Source: Sipunculus nudus (Eukaryota > Annelida > Sipuncula > Golfingiida > Sipunculidae). Taken from it: a stretch of DNA of 64,000 nt. Every line of letters starts with the position of its first letter. Position 1 is the stretch's first letter. Shown one piece after another: positions 54,001 to 60,000 of this stretch. The DNA is taken from contig CM049309.1 of the NCBI GenBank assembly GCA_026874595.1, positions 41,121,079 through 41,185,078 of the forward strand, written 5' to 3'. The notes under the pieces are model-generated. The model was not told the DNA's origin, ran no database searches, and saw only the letters and a list, made by a program, of their open reading frames with translations. A program made the translations under genes and the position numbers.

Positions 54001-57000
54001 CACTTCAAGACAGCCTAATATCAAAACCACTGGTCTGACTTTAATCATATATAACATATATATTTTTCTATACATTCTCTAAGCACATGCCAGAAATGAT
54101 GTCAGTATTGCGTAATTGTTTTCAGTTATGGGCCCAAACATAATGCACTTTGTAAAAAATTAAGAAATATATTTACTCCCTTTACAAGGGGATTGCTGAA
54201 GCTAGAGATTTTTTGTCAGGGATGTAACATTATTTAATCAAGATTCAATTGAATACCCAAAATTATTTCTGAATTTTTCAAATTTTATAAGTTATTAGTA
54301 TAAATATAAAATTAGTACCTTAAATTTTGCCCAACTTTGACCATGGCACGTTTGTTTCCTGTGAGCACTGTTGATACAATTTTCATATCATGCACGCATA
54401 AGGATTTCAGCTTTTTAGTTTAGAAAGCTGAAAGAAATTGGCCAAAAATTGTAGCTTTTATTAATGTTTTTATGAGACAATGTCAGACCTTGGCTCTCTC
54501 AAGCCCCTCTTGAGTCACCTGTATGTTGACCTTGTTGAACTTTCAGCAAATTATGCATGCTTGACGCGAGGCATTCACTGGGGCAGCCAGGCAGCTTATG
54601 GCCAGCCACAGTTGATCCAGGTGTCCAACCCAACTCATTTAGTAGTTTTAACCAACAACATAAAAATAAACAATAAATTAATAAATTTTTATTGATTTTA
54701 ATAACAAATTAAAGAAAAATAAAAAAGGAATTTGTTAGTTTATAATAACAGGACATTAACTTGCAGTTACTGATGATATAAGAATCTCGTATCGATTGAT
54801 AGAATGTCACATATTCCAAATAACACCATGCAGTATTTTTCAGTTCAATTTTAATGATAAAAAAGTAAATCATATTATTCATTACTAATCAATAGGGATC
54901 ATATGAAGGAAATTAATGATAGACAAAGATGCAGTTGATAATATTAATCTAGATTCCTACTGAGTCTTATGTGTACATTCATGTGAAATTAGTCCAAAAT
55001 GAATATATTACATTTTTTTTTTTTTTTAGTATAAATAAAAGCCATAAAACCAGGTACTTATGATCATTATTTAAATGTGTGAATTTTGTATATTCTGGAT
55101 TCTCAACATTATTGTTTGGTGAAAACTATATAAATACCAGACATGGTGCAAATACTTTGCAATTGAAAATTAAAAACGAATATGAATATGTACTCCATTA
55201 TAAAATTTCTTGCATAAAGAATGGGAATTCAGGTAAAAATGAAAGTATATGAATACCAGTGCAAATACTTTCAAAATGTATTCATGAATGCATTCATGAA
55301 TATATTCTTTAATATTATTTTAATAATCATTTCAGTTATATTTCATTTAAAAAAATCATACGATTCTCTTATTATTTTTAATAAAAATTATATTTGGGAC
55401 AATATTTGTAATTTTTTTAATAAATAGTTAAACTCTTATATTATATGTTCTGCTTATAAGTTATATGGCCAAGTCAAAATCTGTGTGACAACAGTACTCC
55501 ATTTGTTAATAATATAAATGAAATCAATCCTCTTCCCTGTCTCCAAAGGTATTATCAAAATCATACATAAGCTAAACAACAACAACTCATAATACAGCTC
55601 ATTTTTATTACCACACTAAACCTGCATGTGCCTCATTTCTAAATCTTATTTTTTTATCATATATAACAGCTGAGCGCCGTGACCCATAGGTCCCTTGTTT
55701 TCTGATTCAAGTCATACACAATACTTCTTATTGGCCAGTTCAGATTGTGGGATGTTTAGCTTACATTGCTTATTATTGGCTGATTCAGGTCATGTGATGA
55801 TCAGTGGATACTGTTTCTAATTGGCTAGTATAGAGTTAATGTTTTTGAAATAAATTTGATTGGCTGGTTTAGGTCATGTGATTTCTAATGGATATTGTTT
55901 CTGTTTGGATGGTACAAATCATGTGAATTTTGATAATGAATGATTGGCTGGTTTAGGTTATACTTCTTCCAGGTGTAACTATCTGTCATTCAACTGTTTT
56001 TGTAATAGTTTGGTGTTTATTTTTTTAGGTGCATAATGCCTTAGTGGAATGACTTTCTTGTAATAGTTTAGTGTTTATTTTTTGTAGCTGTGTGATGCCT
56101 TAGTGGAATGACTTTCTTGTAATAGTTTAGTGTTTATTTTTTGTAGCTGTGTGATGCCTTAGTGGAATGACTTTCTTGTAATAGTTTAGTGTTTATTTTT
56201 TGTAGCTGTGTGATGCCTTAGTGGAATGACTTTCTTGTAATAGTTTAGTGTTTATTTTTTGTAGCTGTGTGATGCCTTAGTGGAATGACTTTCTTGTAAT
56301 AGTTTAGTGTTTATTTTTTGTAGCTGTGTGATGCCTTAGTGGAATGACTTTCTTGTAATAGTTTGGTGTTTATTTTTTGTAGCTGTGTGATGCCTTTGTG
56401 GAATGACTTTCTTGTAATAGTTAGTGTTTATTTTTTGTAGCTGCATAATGCCTTAGTGGAATGACTTTTTTGTAATAGTTAGTGTTTATTTTTTGTAGCT
56501 GTGTGATGCCTTAGTGGAATGACTTTTTTGTAATAGTTAGTGTTTATTTTTTGTAGCTGTGTGATGCCTTAGTGGAATGACTTTCTTGTAATAGTTTAGT
56601 GTTTATTTTTTGTAGCTGTGTGATGCCTTAGTGGAATGACTTTCTTGTTATAGTTAGTGTTTATTTTTTGTAGCTGCATAATGCCTTAGTGGAATGACTT
56701 TTTTGTAATAGTTAGTGTTTATTTTTTGTAGCTGTGTGATGCCTTAGTGGAATGACTTTCTTGTAATAGTTTAGTGTTTATTTTTTGTAGCTGTGTGATG
56801 CCTTAGTGGAATGACTTTCTTGTAATAGTTTAGTGTTTATTTTTTGTAGCTGTGTGATGCCTTAGTGGAATGACTTTCTTGTAATAGTTAGTGTTTATTT
56901 TTTGTAGCTGTGTGATGCCTTAGTGGAATGACTTTTTTGTAATAGTTAGTGTTTATTTTTTGTAGCTGCATAATGCCTTAGTGGAATGACTTTTTTGTAA

Positions 57001-60000
57001 TAGTTTAGTGTTTATTTTTTGTAGCTGTGTGATGCCTTAGTGGAATGACTTTTTTGTAATAGTTTAGTGTTTATTTTTTGTAGCTGTGTGATGCCTTAGT
57101 GGAATGACTTTTTTGTAATAGTTTAGTGTTTATTTTTTGTAGCTGTGTGATGCCTTAGTGGAATGACTTTCTTGTAATAGTTTAGTGTTTATTTTTTGTA
57201 GCTGTGTGATGCCTTAGTGGAATGACTTTCTTGTAATAGTTTAGTGTTTATTTTTTGTAGCTGTGTGATGCCTTAGTGGAATGACTTTCTTGTAATAGTT
57301 TAGTGTTTATTTTTTGTAGCTGTGTGATGCCTTAGTGGAATGACTTTCTTGTAATAGTTTAGTGTTTATTTTTTGTAGCTGTGTGATGCCTTAGTGGAAT
57401 GACTTTTTTGTAATAGTTTAGTGTTTATTTTTTGTAGCTGTGTGATGCCTTAGTGGAATGACTTTTTTGTAATAGTTTAGTGTTTATTTTTTGTAGCTGT
57501 GTGATGCCTTAGTGGAATGACTTTTTTGTAATAGTTTAGTGTTTATTTTTTGTAGCTGTGTGATGCCTTAGTGGAATGACTTTTTTGTAATAGTTAGTGT
57601 TTATTTTTTGTAGCTGTGTGATGCCTTAGTGGAATGACTTTCTTGTAATAGTTTAGTGTTTATTTTTTGTAGCTGTGTGATGCCTTAGTGGAATGACTTT
57701 CTTGTAATAGTTTAGTGTTTATTTTTTGTAGCTGTGTGATGCCTTAGTGGAATGACTTTTTTGTAATAGTTTAGTGTTTATTTTTTGTAGCTGTGTGATG
57801 CCTTAGTGGAATGACTTTTTTGTAATAGTTTAGTGTTTATTTTTTGTAGCTGTGTGATGCCTTAGTGGAATGACTTTTTTGTAATAGTTTAGTGTTTATT
57901 TTTTGTAGCTGTGTGATGCCTTAGTGGAATGACTTTTTTGTAATAGTTAGTGTTTATTTTTTGTAGCTGTGTGATGCCTTAGTGGAATGACTTTCTTGTA
58001 ACAGTTTAGTGTTTATTTTTTGTAGCTGTGTGATGCCTTAGTGGAATGACTTTCTTGTAATAGTTTAGTGTTTATTTTTTGTAGCTGTGTGATGCCTTAG
58101 TGGAATGACTTTCTTGTAATAGTTTAGTGTTTATTTTTTGTAGCTGTGTGATGCCTTAGTGGAATGACTTTCTTGTAATAGTTAGTGTTTATTTTTTGTA
58201 GCTGTGTGATGCCTTAGTGGAATGACTTTCTTGTAATAGTTTAGTGTTTATTTTCTGTAGCTGTGTGATGCCTTAGTGGAATGACTTTCTTGTAATAGTT
58301 TAGTGTTTATTTTTTGTAGCTGTGTGATGCCTTAGTGGAATGACTTTTTTGTAATAGTTTAGTGTTTATTTTTTGTAGCTGTGTGATGCCTTAGTGGAAT
58401 GACTTTTTTGTAATAGTTTAGTGTTTATTTTTTGTAGCTGTGTGATGCCTTAGTGGAATGACTTTTTTGTAATAGTTTAGTGTTTATTTTTTGTAGCTGT
58501 GTGATGCCTTAGTGGAATGACTTTTTTGTAATAGTTTAGTGTTTATTTTTTGTAGCTGTGTGATGCCTTAGTGGAATGACTTTTTTGTAATAGTTAGTGT
58601 TTATTTTTTGTAGCTGTGTGATGCCTTAGTGGAATGACTTTCTTGTAACAGTTTAGTGTTTATTTTTTGTAGCTGTGTGATGCCTTAGTGGAATGACTTT
58701 CTTGTAATAGTTTAGTGTTTATTTTTTGTAGCTGTGTGATGCCTTAGTGGAATGACTTTCTTGTAATAGTTTAGTGTTTATTTTTTGTAGCTGTGTGATG
58801 CCTTAGTGGAATGACTTTCTTGTAATAGTTAGTGTTTATTTTTTGTAGCTGTGTGATGCCTTAGTGGAATGACTTTCTTGTAATAGTTTAGTGTTTATTT
58901 TTTGTAGCTGTGTGATGCCTTAGTGGAATGACTTTCTTGTAATAGTTTAGTGATTATTTTTTTAGGTGCATAATGCCTTAGTGGAATGACTTTCTTGTAA
59001 TAGTTTAGTGTTTATTTTTTGTAGCTGTGTGATGCCTTAGTGGAATGACTTTCTTGTAATAGTTTAGTGTTTATTTTTTGTAGCTGTGTGATGCCTTAGT
59101 GGAATGACTTTCTTGTAATAGTTTAGTGTTTATTTTTTGTAGCTGTGTGATGCCTTAGTGGAATGACTTTCTTGTAATAGTTTAGTGTTTATTTTTTGTA
59201 GCTGTGTGATGCCTTAGTGGAATGACTTTCTTGTAATAGTTTAGTGTTTATTTTTTGTAGCTGTGTGATGCCTTAGTGGAATGACTTTCTTGTAATAGTT
59301 TAGTGTTTATTTTTTGTAGCTGTGTGATGCCTTAGTAGAATGACTTTCTTGTAATAGTTTAGTGTTTATTTTTTGTAGCTGTGTGATGCCTTGGTTGAAC
59401 TGAAGGAATTCAAAGAATTGGAGCAGGTTGCTGTGATGGCCCTGGCCTGTGTCAACTTTACAACAGATGCCAACAAAGCCATGGTTTGTATTTCATAGTC
59501 ATTCTCATACTGATGTGACCTATAATACGGGAGCCAACACCAATTCATAGATAACAAATTTTGTTCTGTTACATTTGTTTTAGTTTCATGAGTATAAACA
59601 TGCTTACTCCAGACACTGGCTTGAACTAGTAAAATGCAGTAAAGGTATTATAACTTTTGACAATTAATATAACTTTTTCTTACATTTTTTAATGATTTTT
59701 ATAAAAAGACAAAATCCTTATAACAACAATAGTCATCAATTACAATAATATATCATCAATGGACCATTGAGGCGTGTGCCAGGAATATGCCTACTTGGTA
59801 AGCACAACTTTTAAGCTTTCTAAAATAAGAAATGTTTACATTTCAACTTTTATAAATTGTCAGAGATTTGTTTCTTAGTTTCAAGTTGGTTTTCAGTGTT
59901 CAAGCTCAGGTGTACTTTTTGTTAGATGAATGGTGTTCAGATGATTTGAATGCAATATTTTTACTAAAAAAATGACCACTCCTTTCCAGCAAGTTGATTT

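What the first reader, a model, noticed from the sequence alone, without database searches (positions are those of the whole stretch)
55998..59378. A 57-copy satellite has multiplied a 3' splice site and the start of its exon
The 59-bp unit contains the polypyrimidine/AG of the GTF3C3 exon 20 acceptor and ~23 bases nearly identical to the exon start (CTGTGTGATGCCTT shared exactly). The spliceosome therefore faces about 57 upstream decoys, each with the same acceptor as the true one, which is the last. Use of any decoy gives LCDALVE then an in-frame TGA, so the only productive choice is the most downstream AG. This could act as a splicing trap that lowers or tunes TFIIIC102 levels, could hold the intron back, or could simply be tolerated. 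The array seems to have grown out of the exon border itself.
Basis: partly seen in the sequence, partly recalled or inferred. Interest (0 to 1): 0.88.

Follow-up and report, generated by a model that had tools for sequence, protein, structure and literature searches.

The report
Satellites grown from splice junctions
In this animal genome the short DNA stretch where an exon meets an intron has repeatedly been copied into tandem arrays of up to 58 copies, so that several genes carry rows of look-alike splice sites beside the one that keeps the protein intact, a natural test of how the splicing machinery chooses.

Summary
A 59-bp array (56000-59399) puts 57 copies of a GTF3C3 acceptor plus the exon start upstream of the true acceptor at 59379. 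53 of 57 decoys equal the true site over -20..+3, and all 57 lead to a stop after seven codons. The commonest unit is an exact mosaic of the first array copy and the true border, as unequal exchange would make.

It is not a one-off. The same gene has a donor version: 46772-48051 multiplies an exon end plus its 5' splice site into 30 downstream copies. Among 77 WD40 exons not chosen for repeats, 10 of 13 local tandem-duplication clusters straddle an exon border, against about 1 expected (P 3e-9). An eleventh cluster ends in the last exon of LIS1. RRM exons gave 0 of 34 borders.

So the array belongs to a recurrent class of splice-junction satellites. Best reading: duplications founded on exon borders are tolerated because the exon-proximal copy stays intact and, under exon definition, should win. 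The proposed splicing trap is possible but unsupported. Why borders are favoured is open. No RNA data were available.

The parts
52920..52976 (+). GTF3C3 exon upstream of the array intron (AHLNEASVSTDDLFDIYTK), donor ACGAAG|GTGAGTAA
   Evidence: Splice-site scan and alignment to human chain.
56000..59348 (+). 57 decoy units of 58-59 bp; each carries a polypyrimidine stretch, an AG and a copied exon start, then an in-frame TGA
   Evidence: TRF and unit typing; decoy products and identity to the true site.
59349..59378 (+). Last unit: intron end with the true acceptor (TTTATTTTTTGTAG|)
59379..59483 (+). GTF3C3 exon LCDALVELKEFKELEQVAVMALACVNFTTDANKAM; first 14 nt shared exactly with the commonest array unit
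46653..46799 (+). GTF3C3 exon ending KLVKSEQYNM; its last 28 nt are part of the second array unit
   Evidence: Aligned to the human LVCSERYNL region.
46800..48051 (+). Donor array: 30 decoy copies of exon end plus 5' splice site; 20 keep GT at the aligned position
   Evidence: TRF 46772-48051, period 42, 30.9 copies; copies aligned to the true junction.
40571..40742 (+). 13-bp array starting 7 bp after a GTF3C3 exon end (40564); does not copy the splice site
46510..46641 (+). (TA)n ending 12 bp before the exon start at 46653; does not copy the splice site

Best explanation
The array is a minisatellite founded on a splice junction. A stretch spanning the intron end and exon start of GTF3C3 was tandemly duplicated; the older copy diverged; unequal exchange between it and the true border made a hybrid unit, which was then amplified. 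It is one of a recurrent class of splice-junction satellites seen at acceptors and donors of unrelated genes in this genome. Such duplications leave the exon-proximal junction intact. Because splice sites flanked by long introns are paired across the exon, the exon-proximal copy should be used, so the decoys cost little and can accumulate. Shown: structure, mosaic unit, recurrence, excess at borders in the WD40 sample. Inferred: the order of events, splice choice and tolerance. Not explained: why exon borders are favoured as founding sites.
For: The commonest unit equals the true border over its first 44 nt and the first array copy over its last 22 nt, overlapping in ATGCCTT. Same gene, donor side: 30 decoys. 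WD40 sample: 10 borders of the first 70 exons carry nearby copies of their own junction, 5 acceptors and 5 donors, on the intron side each time; of the seven exons added later one acceptor (L136) has a weak copy 271 bp away. 10 of 13 duplication clusters straddle a border, P 3e-9. With TRF, 6 or 7 arrays by threshold against 0.4-1.2 expected. Pooled with RRM loci P 1.7e-8. A further acceptor array ends in the LIS1 terminal exon. Decoys look neither purged nor specially kept: 117 of 131 keep the splice dinucleotide; identity is 248 of 261 there and 4144 of 4432 elsewhere. Nearest-decoy offsets are multiples of three in 3 of 11 arrays, about the chance rate, and 10 of 11 would meet a stop. PMC9225289 (abstract, passages) supports exon-proximal choice.
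Against: No RNA data. RRM exons show 0 of 34 borders with TRF, so the rate may differ between gene sets. A test of coverage gave no excess at borders: 9 of 132 against 176 of 3037 intron positions. The excess of founding events at borders is not predicted by tolerance alone, since purely intronic duplications should be at least as tolerable. PMC9225289 reports for 3' sites only a reduced upstream preference under exon definition, so the rule is less secure for acceptors such as this one. Exon borders were called with human-like weight matrices, and only 77 WD40 and 19 RRM exons were used.
Confidence: 0.7

Rival explanations
1. Splicing trap: decoy acceptors capture a share of GTF3C3 transcripts, giving truncated, decay-prone or retained-intron RNA that lowers or tunes TFIIIC102.
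For: 53 of 57 decoys equal the true acceptor over -20..+3 and all 57 give an early stop; the exon's own donor scores low (2.9).
Against: Similar decoys occur at both splice sides in unrelated genes; decoy dinucleotides are not conserved clearly above the rest of the unit. No RNA evidence either way.
Confidence: 0.12
2. Helpful copies: extra donors or acceptors near an exon recruit U1 or U2AF/U2 and strengthen recognition of the true site, or protect long introns from premature polyadenylation, so border arrays are positively selected.
For: Border-straddling duplications are in large excess over other local ones in the WD40 sample; 117 of 131 decoys keep the splice dinucleotide.
Against: True sites with arrays are not clearly weaker: acceptors 3.9 v 5.7, P 0.20; donors 8.7 v 8.1, P 0.25. 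Conservation of the dinucleotide is about that of the rest of the unit.
Confidence: 0.1
3. Ordinary minisatellites that happen to touch exons: duplications start anywhere and no special link with splice junctions exists.
For: None of 34 RRM borders is spanned by a TRF array; RRM loci hold 6 duplication clusters and the window about 6 away from mapped splice junctions; the coverage test shows no excess.
Against: 10 of 13 clusters straddle a border in the WD40 sample against about 1 expected; pooled 10 of 19 with every RRM cluster taken as a miss, P 1.7e-8; dropping the complexity filter adds only one WD40 cluster.
Confidence: 0.07
4. Assembly artefact.
For: No reads were available to check.
Against: Copies differ by ordered variants and block duplications, and similar arrays of other sequence lie at other genes on several chromosomes.
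Confidence: 0.01

Closest known systems
Internal tandem repeats at exon-intron boundaries in human segmental duplications (PMC2812944; passages read, part of the abstract among them)
   Same: Tandem repeats that overlap exon-intron borders and can change splicing.
   Different: There the repeats vary between recent paralogs and remodel introns (27 intron modifications). Here one splice junction is multiplied on the intron side, up to 58 copies, with the exon-proximal copy intact, and the GTF3C3 exon is single-copy.
[quoted passage not shown] PMC4974935, search listing only)
   Same: Tandem duplication creates extra splice sites.
   Different: That process duplicates coding sequence with AG/GT and makes a new intron. 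Here the duplication spans an existing border and no new intron is seen.
Decoy exons and intron detention, as in OGT (PMC12017769, search listing only)
   Same: Non-productive splice sites inside an intron could compete with the real ones.
   Different: Decoy exons are, as I recall, regulated elements with RNA evidence; here there is none, and the units copy one splice side only.
Competing splice sites of Reed and Maniatis (as described in PMC9225289, passages)
   Same: Competing splice sites in cis.
   Different: Those were built for experiments; these are natural, more numerous, and lie in native introns.

Membership tests
Minisatellite/VNTR | Head-to-tail units of about 10-100 bp | tested here: met
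   59 bp x 57.9, 97% matches; 42 bp x 30.9.
Minisatellite/VNTR | Copy number varies between individuals | not testable with these tools
   One assembly only.
Intron gain by tandem genomic duplication | A new intron arises between duplicated exon sequence | tested here: not met
   The array lies inside an intron whose exon join aligns without a gap to human GTF3C3; units copy one border only.
Tandem acceptors (NAGNAG) | Alternative AGs a few nucleotides apart | tested here: not met
   Decoys are 58-59 bp apart.
Duplicated or mutually exclusive exons | Copies hold a whole open exon with both splice sites | tested here: not met
   All 57 copies stop after seven codons.
Decoy exon / intron detention element | Decoy sites engaged in RNA, intron retained | not testable with these tools
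   No RNA data.
ITR at exon-intron boundary (PMC2812944) | Tandem repeat overlapping an exon-intron border | tested here: met
   Array ends inside the exon.
ITR at exon-intron boundary (PMC2812944) | Variable between recently duplicated paralogs | tested here: not met
   One match to the exon in this genome.

The most novel reading that the evidence does not exclude
Splice junctions are themselves the seeds of tandem duplication in this lineage: a process tied to the junction, acting in the germ line on DNA, keeps founding satellites there, so that a few per cent of exon borders genome-wide have been multiplied into rows of splice sites.
Probability: 0.3. Interest if true: 0.92.

Novelty: new variant of a known kind. 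Interest (0 to 1): 0.77.

Why it matters
If the sampled rate holds across the genome, many natural genes here carry identical competing splice sites, and the exon- and intron-centric proximity rules could be tested in vivo. The excess of duplications at exon borders, if it holds genome-wide, asks for a mutational or selective cause that is not known to me. The arrays also show that a conserved gene can carry dozens of intact decoys, which bears on how introns grow and on how splice variants are predicted.

Tried and rejected
A protein-structure search with one reading frame of 15 kb, stops read as X, found nothing; I then mapped exons with tblastn. Helicase loci were mostly bacterial-looking contigs or long reading frames and were not used for the border test; L012, one of them, has a 280-bp array beside its match and an acceptor-like repeat score of 21, but its match holds stops and was not counted. 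Of 30 RRM loci 19 were kept for the border test; 11 were left out as bacterial-looking, long-frame or without clear borders. In one search twenty helicase and RRM loci were all read on the + strand, which was wrong for 13 of them; redid the ones used with strands set.

I asked whether the complexity filter made the excess: dropping it adds one WD40 cluster, an AT run in L088, one RRM cluster and two in the window. I asked whether arrays sit at weak true sites: no clear difference. I asked whether decoys are purged or kept: neither shows. I asked whether borders are covered by repeats more than introns are: no.

L107 was first counted as a non-border array. Its unit looks like a donor junction, but 160 more bases upstream still hold array and no clear exon, so it stays unresolved and counts as a miss. 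L129 is a two-copy repeat in which I saw no splice junction. L131 counts as a miss in the test; more bases then showed that it ends in the next exon.

Ten paper searches were answered. None listed a paper on satellites founded on splice junctions; that is a statement about the listed rows of these searches in an open-licence library only. The organism was not identified.
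Full report
What is there. The 59-bp array at 56000-59399 is real and 97% uniform by TRF. It has 58 units of 58-59 bp; the last runs into the exon at 59379. The gene is GTF3C3 (TFIIIC102): a query of six joined segments, one an unconfirmed candidate exon, matches human chain 8clk_D with E 2.7e-14, and the alignment crosses the exon join without a gap. Exons map in order on the + strand (with the human protein recalled from memory). 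The exon before the array, 52920-52976, ends on a codon boundary, so the intron is 6402 bp long, more than half of it array. In the genome the array is found at this one place and the exon at one place; the tool calls such counts lower bounds.

The decoys. 53 of 57 decoy acceptors are identical to the true one over -20..+3, and 39 of 57 over -30..+14. All 57 lead to a stop after seven codons: 51 LCDALVE*, 3 LHNALVE*, 2 VHNALVE*, 1 LCDAFVE*. For 39 of 57, then, sequence from 30 bases before to 14 bases after the AG cannot tell decoy from true site.

How it arose. The first copy differs from the commonest unit (TTTTTTTAG|GTGCATAATGCC against TTTTTTGTAG|CTGTGTGATGCC). The commonest unit shares its first 44 nt with the true border and its last 22 nt with the first copy; the two stretches overlap in ATGCCTT. 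This is what one unequal exchange between an old duplicate and the true border would give (inference). The order of variants shows later block copies: GAAAAA at the left edge resembles KAAAAA near the right, and BBBBCFAAC occurs twice.

A second array in the same gene. The exon 46653-46799 ends KLVKSEQYNM (human LVCSERYNL) and is followed by GTGAGT. From 46772 a 42-bp unit made of the last 28 exon bases and the first intron bases is repeated to 48051. Of 30 decoys 20 keep GT at the aligned place. Here the true donor is the first copy. The first decoy, 42 bases on, would add 14 residues without a stop. Two other arrays abut exons of this gene without copying the splice site: a 13-bp array 7 bp after 40564, and (TA)n ending 12 bp before 46653.

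Is it common? I took WD40 exon matches, choosing rows on chromosome-size contigs with short reading frames and without knowing their repeats, and fetched about 1 kb round each, more where matches lay close: 77 of the 123 listed matches, in 67 loci. Borders were called by reading frame and splice-site score; 146 passed. Testing the 40 bases round each border against the rest of its locus, score threshold 17, 10 borders of the first 70 exons have copies of their own junction: acceptors L070, L073, L119, L121, L127 and donors L072, L075, L104, L109, L111, with 1 to 10 extra copies; the single copy in L070 lacks the AG. Of the seven exons added later, one acceptor passes that threshold (L136, score 19); its copy is 271 bp away and weak. 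A separate scan for tandem duplications with lags of 18-160 found 13 clusters in the 67 loci, of which 10 straddle a border; about 1.1 were expected; P 3e-9. With TRF the count is 7 arrays (6 at the strictest threshold) against 0.4-1.2 expected, P 2e-5 to 3e-4. The rate is 10 of 146 borders, 95% interval 3.3-12.2%.

Against this: RRM exons (19 used) gave 0 of 34 borders with TRF, with about 0.1-0.3 expected, and 6 clusters in 60.6 kb, which I did not test one by one for unmapped neighbouring exons. Pooled, 10 of 19 clusters straddle a border, P 1.7e-8, taking all 6 RRM clusters as misses. With the background of the window itself (6 clusters away from the two splice-junction arrays in 64 kb) 0.57 would be expected in the WD40 set. 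A coverage test gave no excess: 9 of 132 borders against 176 of 3037 intron positions at threshold 20; 130 of those 176 positions lie in eight of the loci with border arrays, so the arrays themselves fill much of the neighbouring intron. The excess is in where arrays start, not in how much DNA they cover.

One more. The L131 array runs off the fetched piece; 170 further bases show that it ends in an exon [24 protein letters not shown]. Its best natural full-length match is the C-terminal end of LIS1 (PAFAH1B1); designed WD proteins score slightly higher over part of it. The L109 exon likewise matches WDR5 over 46 of 47 residues, below some designed and repeat-rich chains. I recognise others as RACK1, BRWD/PHIP, striatin and WDR26 from memory only; no call checked these names.

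Are the decoys under selection? Over 12 arrays (10 WD40, 2 GTF3C3) and 131 decoys, 117 keep the splice dinucleotide; identity at those columns is 248 of 261, elsewhere 4144 of 4432. In 11 arrays with an intact decoy, the nearest lies a multiple of three away in 3, about the chance rate, and its use would meet a stop in 10. So decoys look neither purged nor maintained as alternative sites. True sites beside arrays are not clearly weaker than others.

How it most likely works. Carranza and colleagues (PMC9225289; abstract and passages) found that in long introns the sites closest across the exon are preferred, that of two identical 5' sites the exon-proximal one was used exclusively in their minigenes, and that for 3' sites the upstream preference is reduced in the exon-definition class. 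Under that rule the last acceptor and the first donor, the copies that keep the protein intact, are the expected winners, more securely for donors than for acceptors. That would make border duplications tolerable. It does not explain why they outnumber duplications in the intron beside them. A mutational bias at junctions, or a benefit from extra sites, would; neither was tested.

Compared with what is known. Tandem repeats at exon-intron borders are described in human segmental duplications (PMC2812944, passages), and tandem duplication is a known route to new introns (PMC2891723, passages). The present case differs in multiplying one existing junction on its intron side, at high copy number and at a notable share of sampled borders. 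I judge it a new variant of a known kind.

Noticed in passing
46772-48051: Second array in GTF3C3, a donor counterpart of the finding; exon end plus GTGAGT repeated about 31 times.
   Followed up: yes
40571-40742 and 46510-46641: A 13-bp array and a (TA)n run each start or end within 12 bp of a GTF3C3 exon without copying the splice site.
   Followed up: partly
59483-59490: The donor of the exon after the array (ATG|GTTTGTAT) scores only 2.9; of 13 GTF3C3 donors scored only one, from a doubtful anchor, is lower.
   Followed up: no
G000 contigs C61, C62, C66, C69, C72, C74, C77, C83, C89, C90: Long open reading frames with helicase matches of equal score recur on about ten contigs, which look like related bacterial sequences, perhaps symbionts or contaminants.
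   Followed up: no
G000, many chromosomes: RRM matches in a repeated reading frame of about 439 aa, probably a mobile-element protein.
   Followed up: no
26762-26874: A 49-bp sequence repeated twice just upstream of the presumed GTF3C3 start.
   Followed up: no
2948-3217: Reading frame resembling a PDZ domain (by eye), probably an exon of another gene.
   Followed up: no
60119-60190: tRNA-like stretch (GTTCAAATC) in a GTF3C3 intron, perhaps a SINE; by eye only.
   Followed up: no
L107 with L137: 53-bp array whose unit contains CTGGAG|GTGAGG, like a donor junction; no clear exon within the bases held.
   Followed up: partly
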